Assembly: GCA_031274765.1 (NCBI GenBank)
Contig: JAISPR010000048.1
Coordinates: 1-44,081 of the forward strand
DNA length: 44,081 bases
Direction: 5' to 3'
From: Nitrososphaerota archaeon
Lineage (GTDB): Archaea; Thermoproteota; Bathyarchaeia; Bathyarchaeales; Bathycorpusculaceae
The notes beneath the pieces were generated by a model. The model searched no databases. It was not told the DNA's origin and worked only from the letters and a program-made list of their open reading frames with translations. Position numbers and translations under genes: made by a program. Shown here piece by piece: positions 5,750-44,081 of this stretch (position 1 is its first letter; every line of letters begins with the position of its first letter).

Positions 5750-5970
5750 CCCTAATTCCCCTCTCTTAAATAAAAAAACAGTTCCTTTATTAGGCTTATG
5801 GCCAACTGTCTATTTTTCCCCAATGAGCTGTAGGCGATTCAAAAATACCGTCTATTATTTGCAAGCCCAACAGCTTTTCATGCATCAACAAAAAACTGCT
5901 CAAAAAATACCGACACAACAAAACACCAAAATGCTAACCGCCAAAATTCATCCAATCTACAAATCCCCCC

Positions 5971-6075
5971 AGACTGTCCAAAAACTAGGAAAAATCCCTA
6001 AAAAACAAGAAAAGAACCAATTTTCTCCATCCGTTTACACCAAAAACACAAAAAATCATAGTTTTCGGACAGTCT
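5971..6075 (-). repeat. repeat family A, copy 1 (MITE-like)
   Basis: 105 bp starting AGACTGTCCAAAAACTA and ending TAGTTTTCGGACAGTCT, an inverted pair. By internal sequence it is reversed relative to the copies at 15603, 42200 and 43552. It is flanked by C-runs on both sides. It lies only about 20 bp from a second, interrupted copy. Confidence 0.8.
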
Positions 6076-6096
6076 CCCCCACAAAAATCCAATCCC

Positions 6097-6373
6097 AGAC
6101 TCTCCAAAAACGTTACTACTCAGCAAAGGTATATAATGTTACTTTTCACCCATAAACCGCTATGCATAGTGGTTTTTTTGCAAAAATATGATTGTGAAAT
6201 AAGGAAAATAAGAACAAACATTACATAGGGTTATTTTATTGTAAAAACACTACGTAGTGGGACATGCTGAGTCGTAACCCAAAACTATCAAACTCCTTGA
6301 AAAGCAAGAAAAGAACCGATTTTCTCCCCCGCTTTCGACAAAAACACAAAAGTTCTATTTTTCAACCAGACTC
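6097..6373 (-). repeat. repeat family A, copy 2, interrupted by an E element
   Basis: Left end AGACTCTCCAAAA (from 6097) is separated from the rest of an A element (CTATCAAACTCC ... AACCAGACT, to 6373) by the E element at 6112-6278. Without E and an imperfect 8-bp duplication (CCAAAAAC/CCAAAACT) the A sequence is about 102 bp, the expected length. The core CAAGAAAAGAACCGATTTTC is shared with other A copies. Confidence 0.7.
6112..6278 (+). repeat. repeat family E, copy 1 (MITE-like)
   Basis: 167 bp with inverted ends GTTACTACTCAGCA and TGCTGAGTCGTAAC. It matches the reverse complement of the outer parts of 43079-43347 along nearly its whole length, for example GCAAAAATATGATTGTGA and AGGAAAATAAGAACAA. 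It contains the small palindrome CCGCTATGCATAGTGG. It is inserted in a family A element. Confidence 0.8.
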
Positions 6374-11231: not shown

Positions 11232-11392
11232 ACTTACATTCGACGGTTTGGGAAAAAAATATTTGGAATTGTTTATATTACAGGTTGTTGCGTGTTTTTG
11301 GTTATTTTTACAATGGTTTTCTTATTTTTTCGAATATTTTTTGAGCATGATTTAATTTTTGGCTGTTTTAGGTCAAACTGCCGAATGTAAGT
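11232..11392 (+). repeat. repeat family D, copy 2 (MITE-like)
   Basis: 161 bp with the clearest D ends: ACTTACATTCGACGGTTTG at the left and CAAACTGCCGAATGTAAGT at the right, inverted repeats matching at 17 of 19 positions. It shares GGCTGTTTTAGGTCAAACTG with the copy at 21261. Confidence 0.75.
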
Positions 11393-11750
11393 GAATATAT
11401 TTTTCAAAAAGTAGTTTTTAATTGTGATGAGAGTTTGTGTGTTTTTTGTGGTTTCTTGTTTTTTGTCTGAGGTTAGGCGTGGGCATGATCTGTTGCTTGT
11501 GCGTTGGGGTTATTTGTTAAAACCATCATGCCTGCTGAACAGTACCGCTAAATATCTGCTCTTTGCGGTTGGTTATATCGTAACGGTGCAGGCGTTATGT
11601 GTACATTTCTTTATACAAGTAAGGCTTTGTGCACTTTTTTTGTCTGATAGATCGTTGAGTTTACATCAAACATAAGTATTTTGAAATCATACCTTTCAGA
11701 TGCCTAACAGGCAAGCACTTCTTTTAAAAAAACTAATAGAAGGTAAAAAA
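11393..11750. other. upstream region of the surface-protein gene
   Basis: 358 bp without a supported gene. It should contain the promoter of the following gene; a GAAGGT ribosome-binding-like sequence lies at the 3' end, 6-7 nt before the ATG at 11751. Confidence 0.4.
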
Positions 11751-14779: not shown

Positions 14780-14953
14780 TCTGTTTCTTTTTTCAAAATA
14801 TCTTTCTGTCGCTCTTTCTTTTTTCAGCAAATTTCTTGGAATCAAAAAATAGTATAAGGGTACCGCCGAAAATTTTTTAGTCGTCATACGATACAATATT
14901 GCAACAGGCACATACAATGCACGAACACAAATATCTATAAAAACAACATAATG

Positions 14954-15250
14954 CAAAAATTAATCCAAATAAAAGACTCACATGAAAAATTAACAAAACA
15001 CATAAGTACTAAGCACATCCATCCCGCAACAAAAAACAATCCACCCCAACACACAATCCAAAAAAAGTAAACAAACCAAGATACAACCCAACCTCATGTA
15101 CAAAACCCTCTCCAAAACAAATACAACATCTCAAACAACCAAACCCAACCATAAAACAACCGCCGCTCCTTCCGCCGCTTCCTAACATATCAACCAACAA
15201 CAAAGCCCAATCCATATGGGACTCCAAAGAAGCTAGCAAAAACAGAATCG
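14954..15250. other. amino-rich (A+C) tract on the plus strand
   Basis: About 300 bp dominated by A and C on the plus strand, so G+T-rich on the minus strand. It stops where the IS5-type remnant begins. Open frames on the minus strand here reflect scarcity of A and are not supported as genes. Confidence 0.5.
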
Positions 15251-15545
15251 ACAAAAAACCTGATCATTTTACTCCGTTTTTAGAGCAAAAAGGTGCAATA
15301 AAGCATGAGGGTTCCATATTGATGTTTCCTTTGTTGATGTGCCCGTCAGCGTTATGTGTGAAGAAAACAAATAAATAAAAGTCGGCTAAACTTCAACAAA
15401 ATGGTAAAACAAACCCTAATCTAGTCCAAAAAAACGTTGATGCGTGTTGGACGAAGAAAAATGACGAAGTTCATTATGGGTATAAGGGATATGGAAGTGG
15501 ATGAAAAAGTCAAGTGGATTGCGGGTTTTGTAGTTGTGTTTGTTT
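15251..15545 (+). pseudogene. IS5-type transposase remnant
   Basis: Fragments of a DDE transposase readable in shifting frames. DKKPDHFTPFLEQKGAIKHE and GSI lead into IDVSFVDVP, which matches the first catalytic Asp region of IS5-type enzymes. After a further frame change comes NPNLVQKNVDACWTKKNDEV and HYGYKGYG, equivalent to the family's DArWTkK...hyGYKnH block with the second Asp. Next is VDEKVKWIAGFVV, in another frame. Several frameshifts and stops make it a dead gene. Its 3' part becomes G+T-rich, and a family A repeat follows at 15603. Family assignment is from remembered motifs. Confidence 0.7.
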
Positions 15546-15602
15546 TGATGTATGTTGGTTGAAAGTTTGTGGTTTTTTTCTGGTTGAGCGGAGGGGTGTG
15601 GG

Positions 15603-15707
15603 AGACAGTTTAAAAACTAGATTTTTTCGTGTTTTTGGCGGAAATGGGCGGAGAAAATCGGTTTTTTTCTTGTTTTTCTGGGATTTGTGTTAGTTTTCGG
15701 ACAGTCT
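15603..15707 (+). repeat. repeat family A, copy 3
   Basis: 105 bp from AGACAGTTTAAAAACTA to TAGTTTTCGGACAGTCT, containing GGAGAAAATCGG and CTTGTTTTTCTGGGATTTG as in the 42200 copy. It lies in a G+T-rich tract just 3' of the transposase remnant. Confidence 0.8.
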
Positions 15708-15897
15708 GGAGGTGTTCTGTTATTTGTGTTTGGTTAGTATTTTGGTTTTGTTTGTTGGGTGTGGGTATGGTCAAGTAGTATTGTTGTGTCTTGATATATG
15801 GGGTAAAACAGGTTTTCTGGGGTCCCCCTAAGTATAGTAGCTGATGTGGCTGGTAGTCGAACAATTCTTAAACATCTTAGTTTACTATATACCCGAG

Positions 15898-21260: not shown

Positions 21261-21422
21261 CTACTCATGTTTGGTAGTTTGAGAAGAAAATATGTTGAAT
21301 TATTTATATTGTTTATTGTTGTGAGTTTTTTGGTTATTTTTATAACGTTTTTCTTATTTTTTGAATATTTTTGGGTGATAATTTATATTTTGGCTGTTTT
21401 AGGTCAAACTGCTGAATGTAGG
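21261..21422 (+). repeat. repeat family D, copy 3
   Basis: 162 bp, left CATGTTTGGTAGTTTGAG and right GGTCAAACTGCTGAATGTAG. The interior shares TGAATTATTTATA with copy 1 and TTTTTGGTTATTTTTA with copy 2. Confidence 0.7.
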
Positions 21423-21616
21423 TTGCGGCAGTTTGTTTGATGGAAATACCCTGAGTTTTTATCCCCGCAAATAGATTTGGGCTTGTGGTTAGAAAAATTA
21501 TCCAAAAACGATTATCGTTATACTGCATCCTAAGTGACATAGTTCCGCAAAATGTATGCAAAGAAATTTTTCGTTTCAGCCATACAGTAATATAGCCTCA
21601 GTCAACACTATGCAGT

Positions 21617-26365: not shown

Positions 26366-27052
26366 ATGAGCGAAAAGTTCACAGTCGCGCGCTTAACCAG
26401 AGAAAATGAACACTTTGAAATCCTAGTTAAACCCAATAAAGCGCTGGAATACCGTAACGGTAAAATATCTTCTATAACGGAGGTTTTAGCCGCTGAAACG
26501 GTTTTTAGTGACGCAAACAAGGGAACCAAAGTCTCCGAAGATGCAATGACTAAAGCGTTCAAAACTGTCGATCCGCTCAAAATCGCAGATGAAATTCTAA
26601 AGAAAGGAACCCTCCAGCTTACAACAGACCAAAGAAGAAAAATGATTGAAGATAAACGCAGACAAGTAATCGACTTTATTTCTCGCCAGGCAGTTGATCC
26701 AAAAACTAATCTGCCTCATCCACCCCTGCGTATAGAAAATGCTATGGAACAAATCCGTTATGCTATCGATCCATACAAAGCCATTGAGGAGCAGGCTAAA
26801 GATATCGTAAAACTTCTTCGTCCGATTCTGCCGCTAAAAGTTGAACAGGTTAAAGTTGCAATCAAGATTCCCACACAGCACGCTGCTAGAGCATATGGGA
26901 CCATCAAAACGTTGGGCACTATAAAACATGAGGAATGGCGTGGTGACGGCTCATGGTATGGCGAGTTAGAGTTGCCTGCAGGTGCATATGCTTCGCTTTT
27001 AAACAAACTAGGTGACGCGACCAAGGGAAGTGGAGAAGCAAAAATAATCTAA
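26366..27052 (+). CDS. sdo1: ribosome maturation protein SBDS (Sdo1)
   Basis: SBDS family protein, 228 residues, acting in late 50S maturation; in eukaryotes it releases eIF6 with EFL1. Three domains are evident: FYSH-like N-terminal domain (TVARLTRENEHFEILVKPNK, ALEYRNGK, VFSDANKGTKVSEDAM), central helical domain (DQRRKMIEDKRRQVIDFISR, HPPLRIENAMEQIRYAIDP), and a ferredoxin-like C-terminus (LPLKVEQVKVAIKIP, WYGELELPAGAYASLLNKLG). It starts 7 bp after psmA, in its usual position next to the exosome genes. Confidence 0.93.
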   Translation: MSEKFTVARLTRENEHFEILVKPNKALEYRNGKISSITEVLAAETVFSDANKGTKVSEDAMTKAFKTVDPLKIADEILKKGTLQLTTDQRRKMIEDKRRQVIDFISRQAVDPKTNLPHPPLRIENAMEQIRYAIDPYKAIEEQAKDIVKLLRPILPLKVEQVKVAIKIPTQHAARAYGTIKTLGTIKHEEWRGDGSWYGELELPAGAYASLLNKLGDATKGSGEAKII

Positions 27053-27080
27053 ATAATAAATATGAAGAAAAGGTGATTTT

Positions 27081-27794
27081 ATGCCAACATTCTTTGAAAA
27101 AAAACAACTCGTGACACCCGGAGAATTGCTCGCTGAAGGCGACTATTTGCCCGGTGAAAATTCGTATGTGGAAAACGGTAAAATTTATGCCGCAAGAATT
27201 GGACTCGTAGACAGTGACAACAAAAAAGTCAACGTGGTTGCACTTAGGGCTTTTTATGTACCTAAAACAGGTGACATCATCATTGGCACCGTCGTCGAAG
27301 TGGGTTTTAACGGTTGGACCGTAAATATTCAAGCGCCCTACACGGCACTTTTGCGTGCTTCAGATGTATTGAGTCGACCTTTTAAGCCTCAAAACGATGA
27401 GCTCTCAGCAGTTCTCAATGCAGGTGACTTAATTGTTGCCAAAATCGCATCATATGATCGTGCCCATGATCCTCAGCTTACAGTTGCAGAGCCCGGGTTG
27501 GGGAAGATTACGCGTGGTCAAATTCTCAAGGTAACTCCGACGAAGATTCCCCGTATTATTGGCCGAAAAGGGTCTATGATATCTATGATTAAACAAGAAA
27601 CCAACTGTCAAATTATTCTTGGTCTTAACGGTGTGATTCTAGTTACTGGTAAAACCCCTGAAAATGAAGAGGTTGCCATAACGGCTATTCGTAAAATAGA
27701 AGAAGAATCTCATACCAGCGGCTTAACTGACCGCATCACACAGTTATTGAAAGAACAAAAACAACCAATTACTTTGGAGGAAACACAACAATGA
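27081..27794 (+). CDS. rrp4: exosome complex RNA-binding subunit Rrp4
   Basis: Cap subunit that binds RNA and guides it into the Rrp41/Rrp42 ring. 237 residues in three parts: N-terminal domain ([20 protein letters not shown]), S1 domain ([40 protein letters not shown]), and a KH domain ([39 protein letters not shown]). The stop overlaps the start of rrp41 (ATGA). Good GGTGATTTT spacing before the ATG. Confidence 0.94.
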
Positions 27795-35737: not shown

Positions 35738-38700
35738 ATGCCATACATCAAAAAAATCGAGTTAAAAGGCTTTAAGTCTTTTGGGCCCCAGACCATCAAG
35801 GTTAACCTTGATAAAGGCTTTACAGCTATAACGGGGCCAAATGGAAGCGGCAAAACCAATATCATGGACGCACTTCTCTTTTCACTGGGCGAACTCAGCA
35901 CCAAACGTCTCCGCGCAGAAAACAGCGCCAAACTGATTTTCCACGGCTCCGAAAAAGGCGGATTAGAAAAAGCTAAAATGGCCAAAGTTGTAGTCCAATT
36001 TGACAACACCGACGGATTAATGCCTGTAGAAACAAACACTGTTACTATCTCAAGAGAAGTTTACCGCAACGGCCAAAGCGTATACCGTCTAAACGGCCGC
36101 CGCATGAGTCGCACACACATAACTGAAACTCTCTCAATGGCCGCCATATCTAGCATGAGCCAAAACATCATCCCCCAAGGCACCATCACCCGCTTAACCG
36201 ATCTCACATCACTTGAGCGGCGCAAAATTATTGAAGATCTCATTGGTATTGCCCAATACGATTCAGAAAAAACTGAAGCTGAAGAAAAACTACGTGCCGC
36301 TGATATCTCCATTCGGACAGCCATGGGCAGAATTGACGAGGTACAAAAACGCCTAGACGACCTTGAACGTGAACGTAACCAATTATTACGTTATATCTTT
36401 ATCCAAGCTGAAACCCGCAAATTCCAAGCCATAAAAATATCTAGCGCTATAATCCAGCAAAACCAAAAAGTCATCGAAAACACAACCCAAGCACAAAAAG
36501 TGCAAGAACGTGTCGATAAACTTAGAGAACAACGAGACCTGCGGCGAAGTCGACGTCATGAAATCGAAGGTGAATGGCGTAAACTAAGCGGAGAAGGTCT
36601 AGAGCAGGGAGGTAGTGAAGTGTTACGGGTGCAGATTAAAATCGGTGAAGTAAAATCCAAACTCACCGAACTTAGTTCCAAAATTAATTCCGGACAAGCT
36701 AGTCTGGATAGTTTTAAGCGGATAAGAGAAAACAATGCCACTCAGCATGAAACGCTTCAAAAAGAAATTCATGAAAACCGTCTAAAAATACGCCAGTTCC
36801 GTAGTGAACTTGAAAAACTCAAAATCCAACTTGACGAAAAACAGATGCAGCATGAAACGCTGGCCAAAGAAACCGCTCAACTATGGGAAGGGTTAGACGG
36901 AAACAATCAAAAAATCCATAAACTAAACGGTGAAACCGAGGGTTACGTAAAGCGATTGGCGTTTTTGCGTTCTGAATACAAACAAGACAAAGCGGCTTTA
37001 CGCCTTTGTACAGGTAGACTCAAAAGCCTAACAGTTCGAAAAGAAAAATTCATCCAAAGTCAAGCTGAAATCGAAAAATCGTTGGCTGAACTTGAACAGG
37101 TTCAAAGAGACCAAAAAGCACAACTTAAAAATCTTGAAAATACCTTTGAACGTAAAACCCTTCAAAGAGACACAGTATCAAGAGAGATTCTTGAAGCCGA
37201 AAAAATTGCCAGCTCAGCCAAAGATGCCGTCATCGAATTTGCTACTCAACGTAATCTCGCTGCAACTATTGCTGCCGAAGAGAAAGCCTTACGCGGCATC
37301 GAGGAAATGGGTAAAGTTGGGGCCATCAACGGTATCCATGGTAGGCTCCGTGAACTTGTCAAAATCGATAAAACCTATAAAAAAGCAATCGACGCCGCAG
37401 CCACAGGCTGGATGGATGCCCTTGTTGTCAAAGATATCGACACTGCGTTTACCTGTACTGAAACACTTAGACGCATGAAACTGGGAAGAATTAAAATCAT
37501 CCCCCTACAGGGTGCAATAACCCCTAAAAATAAATCAATACCCAAACGCGACGGCATTATGGGTCCATTGAGTGGTTTTATGAAATATGGGGGTAACTTT
37601 GATTTTGCTGTGAACTATGTATTTGGTGATACCGTGGTTGCCACCAATGATAAAGCGGCATTTGCACTCTCTAACGAAGGTTTTCGTGTCGTCACCATAA
37701 ACGGAGATCTTTATGAACCTGGTGCGTTTGAAGGCGGATATTATCGTGCCCCAATAGATTTCTCTACTATAATCCCAAGCGAAAACGCGCTAAAAAGTCT
37801 TGACGAGGCGGTCCGGGCGCTTCAAACCCATCTCACCCAACGAGGCACTGACATTGTAGATATCGAAGAAGAACTTGAACGCGCTAAAACCGATATGGTC
37901 CGATTATCCGAAGGCATTGCAACTCTAGAGCGCGAAATCATTCGTATTCGTCGGGGCGTCAAACGTACCCAATTTAACATCCGTCACATCGATAAATACA
38001 GTAGTAAACTTGAACGTGAAGGGGCCTCCTTTAAGGGCCGTATGACCGTTTATCGTAATGAACGAAGCAATATCCAAACCGGTCTCAAACGTATACACAC
38101 CGAAATCACCTCTTTGCGGCTAAAAACCGATGTGGAACACATCAAGGCGCTAGAAGTGCAGCGTGAAAAATTCGGTGAAGAAGCAAATACCTTGCGCCAA
38201 CGTATAGGTTCTTTGCAAACTGAAATCAACACAAATCAATCTCAATTTGATCATGTTTTGCGTATAAGTTACAAGAACACCAAAATTCAATTAACTAAAA
38301 TGGAACAGCAACAGGTAAAACTGCAAAAAGAAGTCACCGATGCCATTGCTGAACGTGACACAGCCAAAAAAGAGGCTGATGAACTAGAACAAAACCGGGT
38401 GAACCTCTCAAATGCCCTGCTCTCTGCACGTGAAGAAGCCAAAAAGTTTACTTCTCAAATTGATTCAATAGATGCTGAACTTCGCCTGGTTGATGTAGAG
38501 TATGATCAGGCAGATCGGTTGCGAAATCAACTTCAACTCAGTATGGAAACCACCCAGATGCATCTCCATCAGTTTCAAACCCAGCTCAAACAGTACGGTT
38601 ATGAGCAGTTACTGGAGGTTAATGAGCGACAGCTCCAAGATGCAGAAACGACCCTTCGTATGATGCAATTCGAGATGGATCGTATCGGAGCTGTCAACCA

Positions 38701-39292
38701 GCTTGCTGCCCAGCACTACGCCGATCAAATCAGTCGTTACCGTGAGTTGTCGGTCCGTTTAAATGAGCTTGAGCGGGAAAAACAAGCTATCGTCGCATTC
38801 ATGGATGAAATTGAAGCAAAAAAGCGCAAAGTTTTCATGACAGCGTTTGATAAAATCAATGATAGTTTAACTGTTTACTTTAGCAAAATGACTGGTGGCG
38901 GTGAAGCTGTACTGAAACTGGAAAACCCCGATGAACCCTTCACAGGTGGTATAGAGATGATTGTTCAGTTCCCTAACAAGCCCTCTATTGTTGTCAGTGG
39001 CGCAAGCGGCGGTGAACGGTCTATCTCTGCAGTCGCTTTCATATTCTCACTCAAAGAGTTTTCTCCCGCTTCATTTTATATCCTTGACGAAGTAGATGCG
39101 CACCTAGATGCTTTTCACACCACTAAACTTGCTGAAACGTTGCTAGCCGAAGCGGGTCAAACACAGTTTATAGTTATCAGTTTGCGTCCTGAAATGGTTA
39201 ACAAAGCCCAGAAAGTCTATGGTGTCTATGAACGTAACGGTATTTCAAATGTGGTAACTGCCAAATTTCCCGCGGAGGTGTCTGCAAAGTAA
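35738..39292 (+). CDS. smc: chromosome segregation ATPase SMC
   Basis: 1184 residues, full-length SMC that compacts and segregates chromosomes as a dimer with ScpA/ScpB. Walker A GPNGSGKT (33-40); Q-loop and RTHITETLSM region near 125; first coiled coil about 170-515 with RDLRRSRRHEIEGEWRKLSG; hinge about 525-670 (AINGIHGRLRELVKIDKTYK, GFRVVTINGDLYEPGAFEGG); second coiled coil to about 1020; ABC signature SGASGGERS near 1087, Walker B YILDEVDAHLD near 1113, and the His-switch-like region FIVISLRPEM. Its stop overlaps the scpA start (TAATG). Confidence 0.97.
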   Translation: MPYIKKIELKGFKSFGPQTIKVNLDKGFTAITGPNGSGKTNIMDALLFSLGELSTKRLRAENSAKLIFHGSEKGGLEKAKMAKVVVQFDNTDGLMPVETNTVTISREVYRNGQSVYRLNGRRMSRTHITETLSMAAISSMSQNIIPQGTITRLTDLTSLERRKIIEDLIGIAQYDSEKTEAEEKLRAADISIRTAMGRIDEVQKRLDDLERERNQLLRYIFIQAETRKFQAIKISSAIIQQNQKVIENTTQAQKVQERVDKLREQRDLRRSRRHEIEGEWRKLSGEGLEQGGSEVLRVQIKIGEVKSKLTELSSKINSGQASLDSFKRIRENNATQHETLQKEIHENRLKIRQFRSELEKLKIQLDEKQMQHETLAKETAQLWEGLDGNNQKIHKLNGETEGYVKRLAFLRSEYKQDKAALRLCTGRLKSLTVRKEKFIQSQAEIEKSLAELEQVQRDQKAQLKNLENTFERKTLQRDTVSREILEAEKIASSAKDAVIEFATQRNLAATIAAEEKALRGIEEMGKVGAINGIHGRLRELVKIDKTYKKAIDAAATGWMDALVVKDIDTAFTCTETLRRMKLGRIKIIPLQGAITPKNKSIPKRDGIMGPLSGFMKYGGNFDFAVNYVFGDTVVATNDKAAFALSNEGFRVVTINGDLYEPGAFEGGYYRAPIDFSTIIPSENALKSLDEAVRALQTHLTQRGTDIVDIEEELERAKTDMVRLSEGIATLEREIIRIRRGVKRTQFNIRHIDKYSSKLEREGASFKGRMTVYRNERSNIQTGLKRIHTEITSLRLKTDVEHIKALEVQREKFGEEANTLRQRIGSLQTEINTNQSQFDHVLRISYKNTKIQLTKMEQQQVKLQKEVTDAIAERDTAKKEADELEQNRVNLSNALLSAREEAKKFTSQIDSIDAELRLVDVEYDQADRLRNQLQLSMETTQMHLHQFQTQLKQYGYEQLLEVNERQLQDAETTLRMMQFEMDRIGAVNQLAAQHYADQISRYRELSVRLNELEREKQAIVAFMDEIEAKKRKVFMTAFDKINDSLTVYFSKMTGGGEAVLKLENPDEPFTGGIEMIVQFPNKPSIVVSGASGGERSISAVAFIFSLKEFSPASFYILDEVDAHLDAFHTTKLAETLLAEAGQTQFIVISLRPEMVNKAQKVYGVYERNGISNVVTAKFPAEVSAK

Positions 39293-40014
39293 TGGCCTCA
39301 GTTGCGAATTTGGTGACCCGACGGCCCTTTTATTTGCGGCCGCCTTGGAATATTTTGTTTGAACTCAGTAAACTAGAAAAGCTTACCCCTTGGAATGTTA
39401 ACATTGCTTATTTATTACGTACTTTTCTTGTGGAAATGGAGAAAACTGGACCTGAAAAAGTAGATTTTCGTGCGTCGGGGGTTGCATTGGATTCTTCGGC
39501 GTTGATTTATCTCATGAAATCCAAGTTGCTATTGACATTACAAGAACCTCCATCTCAACCGTCCCGAGTGCCAACTGATTTTGTTCCGCCGCCCTTGTTT
39601 TTGCCCCTTCGGCATGAACTCACATCTACAACTATTCAGCATTTACTTGAGGTTTTAGATGATGTTTTAAAGGGTGAAAAACTTTTGTCTCTGCGTCCTG
39701 TGATTGAGCCGCATCCTGTTTTGCCTGCTGTTACTGATTTGTTGCCAAAATTTGACAAGTTTATTGCTGAACTCGAGATGCAAGTGGATAAGCTTTATGC
39801 TTTGTTGATGGAGCGTACGGGTGGGCAGGGTATTATTGATTTCAGTACGCTCTCAAAGGGTGCAACTCGTATTGAAGCCCTTAGAATGTTTATTTATTTG
39901 TTGTTTCTTGCACAAGACGGTTTAGTCAGTCTGTGGCAAAATGAAGAAACTGAAGAGCTCTATATTGCTGTGGGGAAACTAAGCGTTGGAAAATCTGAAC
40001 AATCGTTCCGTTGA
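39292..40014 (+). CDS. scpA: segregation and condensation protein ScpA
   Basis: Kleisin bridging the SMC heads, 240 residues. N-terminal WNILFELSKLEKLTPWNVNI is the kleisin helix region contacting the SMC neck; the C-terminal winged helix contains FSTLSKGATRIEALRMFIYL with LFLAQDGLVSLWQ, which binds the SMC cap. The middle is proline-rich (EPPSQPSRVPTDFVPPPLF). Overlaps scpB by 29 nt. Confidence 0.92.
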   Translation: MASVANLVTRRPFYLRPPWNILFELSKLEKLTPWNVNIAYLLRTFLVEMEKTGPEKVDFRASGVALDSSALIYLMKSKLLLTLQEPPSQPSRVPTDFVPPPLFLPLRHELTSTTIQHLLEVLDDVLKGEKLLSLRPVIEPHPVLPAVTDLLPKFDKFIAELEMQVDKLYALLMERTGGQGIIDFSTLSKGATRIEALRMFIYLLFLAQDGLVSLWQNEETEELYIAVGKLSVGKSEQSFR

Positions 40015-40777
40015 AGAAAACCCTGCTGATCCGATTGTTTCGGATGTTCAAGCGGCGGCTGCCTCTGAGATTACTAAAACTGTTGAGGTTGTACCGAGTG
40101 GGTCATCTGAAAATGTCGAGTCTGCTTTGGATACCGAACAACGTCGTGCCCAAGCTCTAAATCTGCTCGAAGCAGCGCTCTATGTTGCTGGACGTCCACT
40201 GGATATAAACGAGATGTGTCAGGCCGTGGGTAGTCGTAGCAAAAAACGGGTTGTTAGCTATGCGCAGACCCTTATAGAGCAATATAAAGCTCGGAATAGT
40301 CCCTTGGAAATATTGGCGCTCAAAGATGAACGATATGTGTTGCAGGTTAAAGCCGAGTTTACACCGTTGATTAAGCGGTTGGTTAATCGTCCTTTGTTGT
40401 CGTCGGGGCCTCTTAAAACACTTTCTTACATTGCTTATCGTCAGCCCATAACTCAAAAAAGAGTGATTCAAGTTCGCGGGCAACACGCTTATGGTCACAT
40501 CAAATTGTTAAAAGATATGGGTTTGATTATGACTGAGCGGAGTGGGCGTTCTTTGGCTCTTAGAACCACTGATTATTTTGCTGATTACTTTGGGTTAACG
40601 CAGGACATATTGACGTTGAAACGAGATTTGCGCAAGATATTTGGTACTGCTATCAAAGAAGATGCAGTTGAACGGGCCCAGCGTGAAGTTGAGGAAGAAA
40701 AGCAGGCAATGCAGGAGATAGAGGTGTCCCAAGAAGATGGTGACAAACCGTCTGATCAGAGTAGTGGTGACTATTAG
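39986..40777 (+). CDS. scpB: segregation and condensation protein ScpB
   Basis: Kite-type partner of ScpA, 263 residues. The N-terminal 50 residues are low complexity. Two winged-helix domains follow: ALNLLEAALYVAGRPLDINE with MCQAVG; LKTLSYIAYRQPITQKRVIQ, VRGQHAYGHIKLLKDMGLIM and TERSGRSLALRTTDYFADYF. The C-terminus is charged (QREVEEEKQAMQEIEVSQED). TTG start inside scpA; smc-scpA-scpB are thus co-translated. Confidence 0.9.
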   Translation: MENLNNRSVEENPADPIVSDVQAAAASEITKTVEVVPSGSSENVESALDTEQRRAQALNLLEAALYVAGRPLDINEMCQAVGSRSKKRVVSYAQTLIEQYKARNSPLEILALKDERYVLQVKAEFTPLIKRLVNRPLLSSGPLKTLSYIAYRQPITQKRVIQVRGQHAYGHIKLLKDMGLIMTERSGRSLALRTTDYFADYFGLTQDILTLKRDLRKIFGTAIKEDAVERAQREVEEEKQAMQEIEVSQEDGDKPSDQSSGDY

Positions 40778-41150
40778 TTCTGACTGCAAGTAATTGTTGA
40801 TGGCTAAGTTGTAGGTTGTTATTACTTAGAACCTGTGTTCAGTAACGCCTCAGCAATGTATCCTGATTTCTCGGCATTTTTGTACTATATGTGTATGTGT
40901 ATTGATTTTAACTTGATTTTGCGAATAATATTTCAATTAAAGTATTGGTGATGGTTGTTACTATTTTTTACAACACACATTTTTGTTGTGGTGTAATTAT
41001 ACTATACATTGCGCATAAAAATTATGATACAGTCATCATATAAAAAACAAGAGTTAATACACAAAAAACGAATATGGTGTGATATAATAAATAACACGTA
41101 CTAAAAAACGACAAATAATTTTTCAGCCGCGTATATCACAACTTTGACGA
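40778..41150. other. non-coding region after scpB
   Basis: AT-rich, no gene seen. A stem-loop is possible from ACAACAC at 40971 and GTTGTGGTGT at 40984, but it is short. Confidence 0.35.
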
Positions 41151-41174
41151 GAATTCAGGATGTATCCTGAGTTC
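41151..41174. repeat. 24-bp near-perfect palindrome
   Basis: GAATTCAGGAT and ATCCTGAGTTC are separated by GT, matching at 10 of 11 positions. It sits at the border of the amino-rich tract and could be an operator-like or element-end sequence. Confidence 0.5.
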
Positions 41175-41640
41175 CCAGTTTTTAGGCACACGACAAAAAA
41201 CAAAAGACAAAAACAACCCCAAACCAAACCCAAACCAAACAAAAAATTCAAACACTAATGTGTCTAAATTAGACACACAAGCAAACCATTCATCTGCACA
41301 AAAACCATAAACAAACACCAATACGCATACCAAATCACACCATACTACGACCCCAAAACCAAACCTGAACATACCAACACATCCAAAAAACCCACCACAC
41401 AACCCCAGCCCCATAGCCCCCATAGCCAAACACTTCATCACAAAAAGCACAAAAGCAGCCATAGGCAGAAAAAAACAACAAACCACCATCACAAAGTAAC
41501 AAACGAAATCCAAGCTCACATATGCACCATAACCTGCTCAAAACCCCCAAACGACCCACCCGATGGACAATACAAGCCATAGCAGATGAACCATACAACC
41601 CTAAATAATCGACTCCATAACCAACAGTACAGCTTGTGAG
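41175..41640. other. amino-rich (A+C) tract on the plus strand
   Basis: About 460 bp dominated by A and C on the plus strand, G+T-rich on minus. A 17-bp palindrome GTGTCTAAATTAGACAC lies at 41260-41276. Minus-strand open frames of up to 127 codons exist (MSLDFVCYFVMVVCC onwards) but are hydrophobic low-complexity and not convincing as a real gene; they may be a second decayed transposase. Confidence 0.5.
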
Positions 41641-41643
41641 GGC

Positions 41644-42199
41644 ATGAAAAAAACGAAATTAAACCCTAGCTCACCAAAAAAGGGTGCATTCCCAAAGCAA
41701 ATGTTGCTTATGTAGCAAAAATGGAAGATGTCTTGGATGTGTATCAGCGGCCATGATCCTCTTAGACCCGTAGTTGATTGATGAAACCAATAAATAACTT
41801 GTTGAGCAGATTAGGTTCTTTGTGTACTCGGACAATCTCGATGGGTTGATTGTGAGCTGAGCGGGTGGGTGTTGATGTTTTTATGTTTTTGAACTTTGTA
41901 GGTTGGTGTGAAACTATAGTTATTCAAACTTGAGTGGTTATTGATTTTGTTTATGTGTTCAAGTTTATTTTGGATGTGATGTATTTTTTGGTTGATGGGT
42001 TTGTTTTGGTTGTGGGTAATTTGAATGCGTGTGTGGTTGGGGTGTTGTATGGGGTGTTTTGTGTGGAGGAGGCGTGTGGGCTTGTGAGTTGGTTTGAGTG
42101 GCATTATGCTTTTGTGTATGGGGGTTGGTTGGGTGTGGTTGAGATTGGGTTGGGGTTGTGTGTGGTTTGGTGCTTGGGTGTTTGTTTGGGGGTTTGGGG
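41644..42199 (+). pseudogene. IS630-type transposase remnant, keto-hypermutated 3' part
   Basis: The 5' part is readable with frameshifts: KKTKLNPSSPKKG, then IPKANVAYVAKMEDVLDVYQ with RP, then DPLRPVV and IDETNK, as in IS630-type enzymes (MEDVLdvYxrPyDPxrPVVcxDE); the first catalytic Asp (41777-41785) is retained. From about 41930 the plus strand turns G+T-rich, yet the frame still follows the family: VLVVGNLNACVVGVLYGVF for VLVxDNLNTHtpasLYEaF, EEACGLVSWFEWHYAFVYGG for EEArrLvxRlEfHYTPKHGS, WLGVVEIGLGL for WLNMAEIExSxL. The second Asp has become Gly. Most replacements are A-to-G or C-to-T. Ends at the family A repeat at 42200. Confidence 0.75.
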
Positions 42200-42303
42200 A
42201 GACTGTCTAAAAACTAGATTTTTTGTGTTTTTGGTGTGAACGAACGTAGAAAATCAGTTCTTTTCTTGTTTTTCTGGGATTTGTGTTAGTTTTCGGACAG
42301 TCT
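42200..42303 (+). repeat. repeat family A, copy 4
   Basis: 104 bp from AGACTGTCTAAAAACTAG to TAGTTTTCGGACAGTCT. The second half, CTTGTTTTTCTGGGATTTG, is identical to that of the 15603 copy. It interrupts or borders the IS630 remnant. Confidence 0.85.
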
Positions 42304-42357
42304 GTGGGATGTTTTTGGAGTTGTTGGGGTATAGTTTAGTGTCTCTTGTGGTGTAGC

Positions 42358-42545
42358 GGTTGTTTGTTTATTTGTTTGGGTGTGGTGGGTGTGTTAGTTG
42401 GGGTTTTGTTTGTTTTTTGTTTTTTTGGTTGTTGGGTTTGGGTTTGTTTTTGGTGGGTTTGGTTTGTGTTGTTTGGGTTTGGTTTGTTTTGTTTTTGGGG
42501 TTTGTTTTTTGTGTTTTTTGGTTTGTTGGGGTGTTTTGGGTAGGT
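42358..42545. other. 188-bp tract without C and with only three A
   Basis: The plus strand contains only G and T apart from A at 42370, 42396 and 42542. As stop codons need A, all three plus frames stay open; these frames are compositional artefacts, not genes. Confidence 0.9.
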
Positions 42546-42553
42546 CTTGTTTT

Positions 42554-42570
42554 AAACTGCCGAATGTCAG
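42554..42570 (+). repeat. possible right end of a repeat family D copy
   Basis: AAACTGCCGAATGTCAG matches the right end of the D copies at 11392 and 21422. No left end could be found; the preceding sequence is the G+T tract. Confidence 0.4.
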
Positions 42571-42944
42571 TTATATGTCAATGTGAATTTAAGTTGCTAT
42601 AATGAAAAACATAGGCAAGCTTAAAGAAGGAAAACGGAGCACACCCACCTAAAATAGCGAAAAGCCACATTTTGACACGAATTAAAACTGTTTTTGGGTT
42701 TTAAACAAATTTAGCGGCATTATAAATCGTAAAATAACATGTCACTAATATGATTTTTACAAAAAAACAAGTTAGAATTTGACTTAAAATCAAATAACCC
42801 TGCCGTGTTTTATTGGTAGTTTATTTTTCTGAGACGTTTTTGATTTTTAATATCTTTTGAGTGTTTGGTATTTTCCTTCTGCTTTGTTTATTTGGAAGGG
42901 AATGATTTATGAGCGGGTACGATGTATTTGGAATCTGAAGAGTT
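42571..42944. other. non-coding region upstream of tRNA-Val
   Basis: AT-rich, 374 bp. I see no gene; the tRNA promoter should lie at its 3' end. Confidence 0.35.
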
Positions 42945-43021
42945 GGGCCGTTAGTCTAGCTGGCTAGGACGTCGCCCTCACGCGGCGAAGATCACCGGTT
43001 CAAATCCGGTACGGCCCACCA
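42945..43021 (+). tRNA. tRNA-Val (anticodon CAC)
   Basis: Full cloverleaf: acceptor GGGCCGT/ACGGCCC; D-stem GTCT pairing with GGAC; anticodon stem TCGCC/GGCGA with loop CTCACGC, anticodon CAC (reads GUG); T-arm ACCGG TTCAAAT CCGGT. Discriminator A at 43018 followed by encoded CCA (43019-43021). No intron. An E-family repeat lies 57 bp downstream. Confidence 0.95.
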
Positions 43022-43078
43022 AACAACACTCAGTAGTGAGAACATTCATTGAGAAACAAGTGAAGGTATAGTTCAAAC

Positions 43079-43347
43079 GTTACTACTCAGCAGGTTCCCA
43101 CTATGTAGGCAACCTCCGAAAATCTACATTTTTCCAAAGCGCCTGTTGAAAACGGTGTAACTATGTTATTTGTTTTTCTGAAATGGGATTTTTGGAGGTT
43201 GCATGTAGTGTTTTTACAACAAAATGATGCATATATAGTGCTTGTTCTTATTTTCCTTCTGTCACAATCATATTTTTGCAGAAAAACCACTATACATAGC
43301 GGTCTACAAGTGAAAAATAATGCTATACACCTCTGCTGAGTAGTAAC
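43079..43347 (-). repeat. repeat family E, copy 2, interrupted by a B element
   Basis: Ends GTTACTACTCAGCA and TGCTGAGTAGTAAC, flanked on both sides by the 8-bp direct repeat GTTCAAAC (43071-43078 and 43348-43355). Reversed relative to copy 1. Total 269 bp, i.e. 167 bp of E plus about 102 bp of the inserted family B element. Confidence 0.85.
43105..43208 (-). repeat. repeat family B, copy 3, nested in E
   Basis: GTAGGCAACCTCCGAAAA at the left and TTTTTGGAGGTTGCATGTAG at the right. Its reverse complement aligns with copy 1 (CCCATTTCAGAAAA and GGAAAAATGTAG). It lies within the E sequence equivalent to CACTACGTAGTG at 6248-6259. Confidence 0.8.
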
Positions 43348-43551
43348 GTTCAAACAACTTTTGTCCCAATGCTAGTGTTGGGGGAGACTGAAAACCCGAT
43401 AGTTAGATCAGGCGTTCTGTGGTAGGTGTTTGTTAGATAGTTTTGAGATATATCAGTTTGAGGTTTGTGGTTTGTTTTGGATTTTGGAGGGGGGTTGATA
43501 ATGTTTTGGTTGAGTGTGGTTGGTAGGGTGAAGGGGTTGTGGAAGGTGTGG

Positions 43552-43645
43552 AGACTGTTTAAAAATAGAATTTTTGTGTTTTTTGCAGAAATGGGTGGAG
43601 AAAATCGGTTTTTTATTTTTTGGGGTTTTTACTATTTTTTGACAG
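43552..43645 (+). repeat. repeat family A, copy 5, degenerate
   Basis: AGACTGTTTAAAAATAGAAT at the left; the core GGAGAAAATCGGTTTT is kept; right end decayed to TTTTTTGACAG. It lies in a G+T-rich tract. Confidence 0.6.
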
Positions 43646-44081
43646 GCGGGCAGGTTGTGGTTTGTTATTGGGCTGGCTTTTGTGTGGGGTTTTGTGTTTA
43701 GGGTGTGTTTGTGGATATTGTTTGCACTATTGTTTGCTGTGGGGGTTTTTTGTTTTTTGGTTCTTTATTGGGCTGAATAGTTATAATTTTTTAGTTTATG
43801 GAAAGTAAGAATTTTTGTAATATCTGTGATTTGCAATGTTTATTGTGTGTAAGTTTGATAGGTAGACGTTTAATTTGAATATTTTTATAAATTGTCTAAT
43901 GGGTTAAGAAATTTGGAAGTCGGGTGGGTTGAAAAGGGGGTGGTCAGATTAAAACAAAATTGGGCAGTGTGCCACTTTAGAATAGATAATTTGGCGTAGA
44001 ATCAAACCCGTGTTAACTCCATAGATGTTGATAGATTCGTCAAATTTTTAAGGGAAAAACCACGCTTAAATTTATGTACGA
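43646..44081. other. non-coding, G+T-rich then AT-rich end of window
   Basis: No supported gene. 43646-43790 continues the G+T-rich tract; the last 250 bp are AT-rich without recognisable structure. Confidence 0.4.

What the first reader, a model, noticed from the sequence alone, without database searches (positions are those of the whole stretch)
41644..42199. IS630-type transposase remnant altered mainly by A-to-G and C-to-T on its coding strand
From 41934 the plus strand is extremely G+T-rich, yet its translation follows the IS630 transposase pattern residue by residue. Replacements such as D to G, N to G, M to V, T to A or V, A to V, H to C or Y, S to G, R to C or W, P to F, Q to W, E to G are each reachable by A-to-G and/or C-to-T changes on this strand; conserved residues with few mutable bases (W, L, F, G) survive. 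The 5' third of the same remnant is not biased. Ordinary decay would not give such one-directional, one-strand change. It looks like strand-specific hypermutation (deamination of both C and A, or an error-prone copying process) acting on a mobile element, which I do not know to be described in archaea.
Basis: partly seen in the sequence, partly recalled or inferred. Interest (0 to 1): 0.85.

Follow-up and report, generated by a model that had tools for sequence, protein, structure and literature searches.

The report
One-strand mutation of dead archaeal DNA
A dead jumping gene in a termite-gut archaeon has been rewritten by letter changes that hit only one DNA strand (A to G and C to T), and the same one-sided wear is found in other dead repeats across this genome and its termite-gut relatives, which may expose a repair defect or an unknown source of single-stranded DNA in archaea.

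Summary
Window 41934-42199 is the 3' half of an IS630 transposase. It also missed the scale. About 12% of 667 kb sampled from this genome lies in such G/T- or C/A-rich tracts, against 1.4% in a free-living congener. Polarised changes confirm a mutation process: all seven copies of an IS1 element changed in a single direction each (38:0, 37:4, 4:48, 6:40 and so on), the direction set by the locus. It recurs in a second termite-gut clade. So this is not hypermutation aimed at one element, but strand-specific A>G plus C>T change of unconstrained DNA in termite-gut Ca. Bathycorpusculum. Tract-rich genomes lack endonuclease V (deoxyinosine repair), although lifestyle and phylogeny confound this. 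Best reading: deamination of whichever strand is repeatedly single-stranded, with hypoxanthine left unrepaired. What exposes the strand and sets the direction is unresolved. New variant of a known kind.

The parts
41184..42198 (+). IS630-family transposase remnant (whole element body; weak further match after the inserted repeat, to about 42459)
   Evidence: Purine/pyrimidine-space alignment to L102 818-1846 and L111 29-1050: scores 275-338 against 96-136 for reversed controls; joined 41700-42198 + 42305-42600 raises the score from 337.5 to 363
41184..41640 (-). Left half of the element: C/A-rich on + (GT 0.20); changes G>A + T>C 48 against A>G + C>T 22 relative to L102
41640..41860 (+). Crossover of the skew near the middle of the element (already toGT 33 : toCA 7 against L102)
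41860..42198 (+). Right half: G/T-rich on + ; toGT 67 : toCA 6 against L102, 44 : 5 against L111
42199..42304 (+). 105-bp palindromic repeat (MITE1, AGACTGTCTAAAAACTAG...CTAGTTTTYGGACAGTCT) inserted in a G-run inside the GT-rich half
   Evidence: 23-51 copies in the genome; copies sit with their GT strand on the GT strand of the surroundings
42305..42553 (+). G/T-rich tract, including 145 nt (42397-42541) without A or C
43414..43944 (+). Further G/T tract with a decayed MITE1 copy at 43551-43649
14902..15260 (-). C/A-rich tract (GT strand is -), first of a -/+ tract pair
15514..15804 (+). G/T-rich tract with MITE1 at 15602-15708, second of the -/+ pair
5883..6111 (-). C/A-rich tract with MITE1 at 5970-6076 on the - strand

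Best explanation
The remnant is a dead IS630 copy decaying in a genome where unconstrained DNA mutates with an extreme strand asymmetry: A>G and C>T on one strand and almost nothing on the other. Shown: the direction of change, its one-strandedness, that it is set per locus, that it acts on repeats of different families, and that it recurs in a second termite-gut clade. Inferred: the chemistry is deamination of C (to U) and A (to hypoxanthine) on a strand that is repeatedly single-stranded, and loss of endonuclease V leaves hypoxanthine unrepaired, so that A>G is fixed alongside C>T. Weakest, and only my most likely choice: the exposed strand is the one displaced by transcripts that are not translated (read-through, antisense and mobile-element RNAs forming R-loops). 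That would explain why poorly translated mobile-element genes and dead DNA are hit hardest and ordinary genes little.
For: Direction in the window element. Seven of seven IS1 copies are one-sided, the same way in both halves in the two most changed copies split by half; per-copy overdispersion 152 against null 6.9; MITE1 and MITE3 overdispersed, p<=0.0005. Copy direction follows flank skew, Spearman 0.47, p 9e-4. Rates on the hit strand: C>T 15.7%, A>G 6.6%, reverse about 1%, transversions about 1%, weak context. Second clade: G042 repeat copies 23:3 against 1:19 (overdispersion 36 against null 5). G014 (EndoV present, tract fraction 1.4%) shows none. EndoV absent in every genome with at least 70 forty-base G/T-run starts per Mb. 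IS630 elements in other genera have flat profiles. Hypoxanthine replicated before repair gives A:T>G:C, and EndoV acts on it (PMC8438529, PMC4357722).
Against: Direction of tracts does not follow flanking gene orientation (tandem context 80 co-directional, 64 antisense), so the transcription step has no positive support. UDG is present in G000, yet C>T is the commoner change; uracil in single strands cannot be repaired from a complement, but that is an argument, not a test. EndoV loss is confounded with termite-gut lifestyle and IS load; only 4-6 independent contrasts exist and they are not significant. EndoV-negative G041, G018, G017 and G022 have few tracts, and order-level G036/G054/G057 lack EndoV with none or almost none. 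Intact mobile elements are C/A-rich in their 5' half and G/T-rich in their 3' half, which needs exposure of both strands.
Confidence: 0.55

Rival explanations
1. Single-stranded 3' tails: double-strand breaks (transposon excision, breaks at gene or element ends) are resected 5'>3', and the exposed 3' tails are deaminated, as in strand-coordinated mutation clusters of yeast and tumours. An excised element would have its bottom strand exposed in the left half and its top strand in the right half.
For: Predicts exactly the -/+ crossover inside IS630, IS1 and IS1634-like elements. Clustered hypermutation at break-derived ssDNA is known elsewhere (PMC6786661). Unidirectional dead copies would lie to one side of a recurrent break.
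Against: Group II intron RT genes, which move through RNA, show the same 5' C/A to 3' G/T gradient (0.29 to 0.86 at four-fold sites). The outermost 100-150 bp of intact elements are neutral, although tails should be longest exposed there.
Confidence: 0.22
2. An active host defence: a dedicated deaminase or hypermutator, RIP-like, marks mobile elements on one strand.
For: Mobile-element remnants are the clearest victims; dense one-sided change; restricted to IS-rich lineages.
Against: No deaminase of family PF00383 tracks the trait; no RT in tract-rich G042/G044; no sharp sequence motif; 105-bp non-coding repeats and unrecognisable intergenic DNA are affected as well; direction is per locus, not per element.
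Confidence: 0.1
3. Local replication-strand bias: forks pass each locus in a fixed direction and the leading or lagging strand decays.
For: Spectrum (G and T up on one strand) is that of ordinary leading-strand skew and of the heavy strand of mitochondrial DNA (established knowledge).
Against: Direction flips over a few hundred bases within contigs: two repeat copies 230 bp apart on C143 changed in opposite directions (27014-27117 9:1, 27344-27448 0:7). No contig-scale dominance.
Confidence: 0.12
4. Ordinary: the element was always built of such codons, or the tracts are simple low-complexity DNA, so no special mutation process is needed.
For: Intact relatives already have GT-rich 3' halves (0.65-0.73).
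Against: Direct substitution counts, polarised private changes in dead non-coding repeats, flat IS630 profiles outside the genus.
Confidence: 0.05
5. A DNA polymerase that tolerates A.C mispairs copies one strand (template A read as G, template C read as T); no deamination involved.
For: One mispair type would explain both changes on one strand; not excluded by any sequence result here.
Against: No such polymerase bias is known to me; would still need a repeated single-stranded template at each locus.
Confidence: 0.1

Closest known systems
Strand-asymmetric deamination of vertebrate mitochondrial DNA (heavy strand single-stranded during replication)
   Same: C>T and A>G on one and the same strand, giving a G+T-rich strand (established knowledge; not tested here)
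   Different: Here local, direction flips within hundreds of bases, in a chromosome, acting mainly on dead DNA
Strand-coordinated mutation clusters (kataegis) at break-derived ssDNA in yeast and tumours (e.g. PMC6786661)
   Same: One-strand base changes over hundreds to thousands of bases, with strand switches
   Different: There mostly C only, with enzyme motifs (APOBEC) or added mutagens; here C and A, weak context, accumulated over evolutionary time
Repeat-induced point mutation (RIP) of fungi
   Same: Repeats and transposons decay by transitions
   Different: RIP is C>T on both strands with a CpA preference and needs duplication; here A>G as well, one strand per locus, not repeat-specific
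Diversity-generating retroelements
   Same: Directional, strand-specific substitution
   Different: DGRs change A only, to any base, through a reverse transcriptase; tract-rich G042 has no RT
IS630 family (Tc1/mariner-like) insertion sequences
   Same: The remnant is one by alignment to intact members
   Different: Decayed and strand-skewed in two opposite halves

Membership tests
IS630 insertion sequence | DDE_3 transposase sequence | tested here: met
   Found by an intact IS630 protein query (E 4.8e-9); 45-54% aa identity to L111/L098/L102; Pfam itself does not ring on the damaged protein
IS630 insertion sequence | Terminal inverted repeats and TA target duplication | tested here: inconclusive
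   Ends too decayed; left end placed only to about 41184
Strand-asymmetric ssDNA deamination | A>G and C>T in excess on one strand, reverse changes rare | tested here: met
Strand-asymmetric ssDNA deamination | The strand is demonstrably single-stranded | not testable with these tools
   Needs ssDNA-seq, DRIP or native-base mapping
RIP-like defence | Acts on repeats only, both strands, C>T | tested here: not met
   One strand per locus and A>G as well
Dedicated deaminase hypermutation | Candidate deaminase present in affected and absent in unaffected genomes | tested here: not met
   PF00383 in nearly all congeners; other deaminase families not tested
Diversity-generating retroelement | Reverse transcriptase in every affected genome, A-specific change | tested here: not met
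   RVT_1 absent in G042 and G044; C>T is the commoner change
EndoV-deficiency mutator | EndoV missing wherever tracts are abundant | tested here: inconclusive
   True for all genomes >=70 run starts/Mb; Mann-Whitney p 0.005; not significant on independent contrasts; several EndoV-negative genomes lack tracts

The most novel reading that the evidence does not exclude
Archaea of termite guts carry a host process that selectively and repeatedly exposes and deaminates one strand of mobile and dead DNA (both C and A), a prokaryotic counterpart of RIP or APOBEC restriction, which erases insertion sequences by turning them into G/T-only sequence.
Probability: 0.1. Interest if true: 0.9.

Novelty: new variant of a known kind. 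Interest (0 to 1): 0.68.

Why it matters
It gives a sequence-level record, seen in two termite-gut clades, of a strand-specific mutation process in archaea that I found described nowhere (open-access library only). It would make two questions testable: what makes chromosomal strands single-stranded in archaea outside replication, and what endonuclease V does for an archaeal genome. It also warns annotators: G/T-only DNA has no stop codons, so these tracts yield long false genes.

Tried and rejected
Host-gene transcription as the source of tract direction: no association. Contig-scale strand dominance: not found. A genome-wide 5'>3' gradient in host genes: present in G000 (slope p 4e-12) but absent in tract-rich G042, so not the cause. 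The 105-bp repeat as cause: copies lie within tracts with both flanks biased alike and sit in G-runs, so they look like late arrivals. The Ca. B. termitum EndoV pseudogene as a second dead host gene: only 12:6, a young and near-balanced case. EndoQ-like TIGR00375: in nearly all genomes, not informative. Transposition-only explanation: weakened by group II intron genes showing the same gradient. Automatic repeat families inside tracts with consensus GT near 0.1 or 0.9 were ignored as low-complexity alignments.

Full report
What the window is. The window is contig C118 of a 2.50-Mb, 170-contig archaeal genome bin. Its relatives identify the genus: the best named match is Ca. Bathycorpusculum termitum, and other congeners are B. 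acetigenerans, B. hydrogenotrophicum and B. grumuli, in the family Bathycorpusculaceae of class Bathyarchaeia, whose termite-gut members form two separate lineages within the genus (PMC10684969). The finding lies between the SMC-ScpA-ScpB operon (35738-40777) and a tRNA-Val (42945-43021).

The intact IS630 transposase of the same genome finds 41862-42251 in a blind search. The closest relatives are copies in congeners G042 (L111), G020 (L098) and G047 (L102), 45-54% identical in amino acids without gaps. At nucleotide sites where these three agree, 23 of 49 A/C bases are now G/T and only 2 of 123 G/T bases are now A/C (Fisher p about 6e-13). The nearest functional copies are nevertheless already skewed, so the remnant exaggerates a pattern that its family shows.

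In the purine/pyrimidine alphabet, which A>G and C>T leave unchanged, 41184-41759 aligns to the 5' half and 41700-42200 to the 3' half of the same element. The 5' half changed the other way: 48 G>A/T>C against 22 A>G/C>T. The 3' half changed 67 to 6 in favour of A>G/C>T. Each half is thus G/T-rich on the strand that reads outward from the middle. The 105-bp repeat at 42199-42304 was inserted in the G/T-rich half; beyond it the IS630 match continues only weakly.

It is genome-wide. Runs of 40 G/T-only bases number 4150 (overlapping starts) in this genome, 2959 in G042, 1205 in G015, and 0-174 in congeners that keep EndoV; other genera have close to none. About 12% of 667 kb sampled here, 11.5% of 453 kb of G042 and 1.4% of 400 kb of G014 fall in G/T- or C/A-rich tracts. 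Part of the G000 sample was chosen because it held the 105-bp repeat; contigs not chosen for it in the first round gave 7-10%.

It is mutation, and it is one-strand. Seven IS1 copies in this genome were compared with their consensus. All seven are one-sided: 38:0, 37:4, 8:2, 1:6, 6:40, 4:48, 1:24 (A>G + C>T against G>A + T>C). In the two copies with most changes that were split by half, both halves go the same way (13:3 and 19:0; 3:32 and 0:8). So direction is a property of the locus. Two further repeat families are overdispersed in the same manner, and copy direction follows the skew of the flanking DNA. For the pooled rates I kept only one-sided copies of the other families, which inflates contrast; the IS1 family needed no such choice. 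On the hit strand C>T is 15.7% and A>G 6.6% per site, reverse changes about 1%, transversions about 1%, with little sequence context. In G042, from the other termite-gut clade, one family has copies at 23:3 and 1:19. In G014, which has EndoV and few tracts, no overdispersion was seen, though only two small families could be tested.

Element halves. Intact IS630, IS1 and an IS1634-like transposase (named by eye from its sequence, not by a database match) in this genus run from C/A-rich 5' to G/T-rich 3' (four-fold sites from 0.04-0.45 to 0.9-1.0), while IS630 genes in other genera of the family and order are flat, though only one of those is complete. Group II intron reverse-transcriptase genes (called so from RVT_1 and size) show the same gradient, 0.29 to 0.86. 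Because these introns move through RNA, cut-and-paste ends alone cannot explain it. Host genes show it weakly in G000 and not in G042.

Cause. Known chemistry that changes A to G and C to T on one strand is deamination of a single-stranded stretch. EndoV, which starts repair of hypoxanthine in archaea (PMC8438529, PMC4357722, abstracts), is missing from all genomes with at least 70 run starts per Mb: both termite clades and G024. B. termitum retains it as a pseudogene. The association is significant without regard to kinship (p 0.005) but rests on 4-6 independent changes and is not significant on them. Termite-gut life and IS load change together with it. EndoV loss alone is not sufficient: G041 and G018 lack it and have no tracts. 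UDG is present in G000. No deaminase of PF00383 and no reverse transcriptase tracks the trait.

What sets the direction. I could not find it. Neither host gene orientation nor position in the contig predicts it, and it can flip within 300 bp. Untranslated transcription is my preferred source because dead DNA and poorly translated mobile-element genes are hit most, but this step is inference. Break-derived 3' tails are the main rival.

Verdict. Confirmed observation, larger and differently shaped than reported; interpretation partly supported; a new variant of strand-asymmetric deamination, not a proven defence.

Noticed in passing
window 42199-42304, 5970-6076, 15602-15708, 43551-43649 and about 50 copies in the genome: 105-bp palindromic repeat (MITE1) with 17-bp terminal inverted repeats, sitting in G-runs and oriented with the GT strand in nearly all copies; often near contig ends and in closely spaced groups (L067, L071, L085). 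No autonomous partner found.
   Followed up: partly
window 43071-43355 (fragments at L017, L082, L072): A second, 285-bp repeat with 23-bp inverted ends (GTTCAAACGTTACTACTCAGCAG).
   Followed up: no
window 11233-11394 and 21264-21425, 20 or so copies elsewhere: A third, about 162-bp repeat (MITE3) whose copies show one-sided change.
   Followed up: partly
relatives G000-G060: Endonuclease V is lost in both termite-gut clades; G042, G044 and G041 also lack UDG (PF03167).
   Followed up: partly
L225 (G012:C26:7790-8342): EndoV survives as a frameshifted, stop-containing pseudogene in Ca. B. termitum; its changes are near-balanced (12:6).
   Followed up: yes
L322-L330: Group II intron-like reverse-transcriptase genes run from C/A-ending to G/T-ending codons along their length.
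   Followed up: yes
window 41934-42239, 41136-41519; L071 4769-5125: G/T-only and C/A-only tracts lack stop codons and produce long false open reading frames; an annotation hazard.
   Followed up: no
L098 841-1515 (rc): A 225-aa DNA-binding-like ORF beside an IS630 copy whose second half is C/A-rich (Q/T/N/P-rich protein); may be another mobile gene under the same bias.
   Followed up: no
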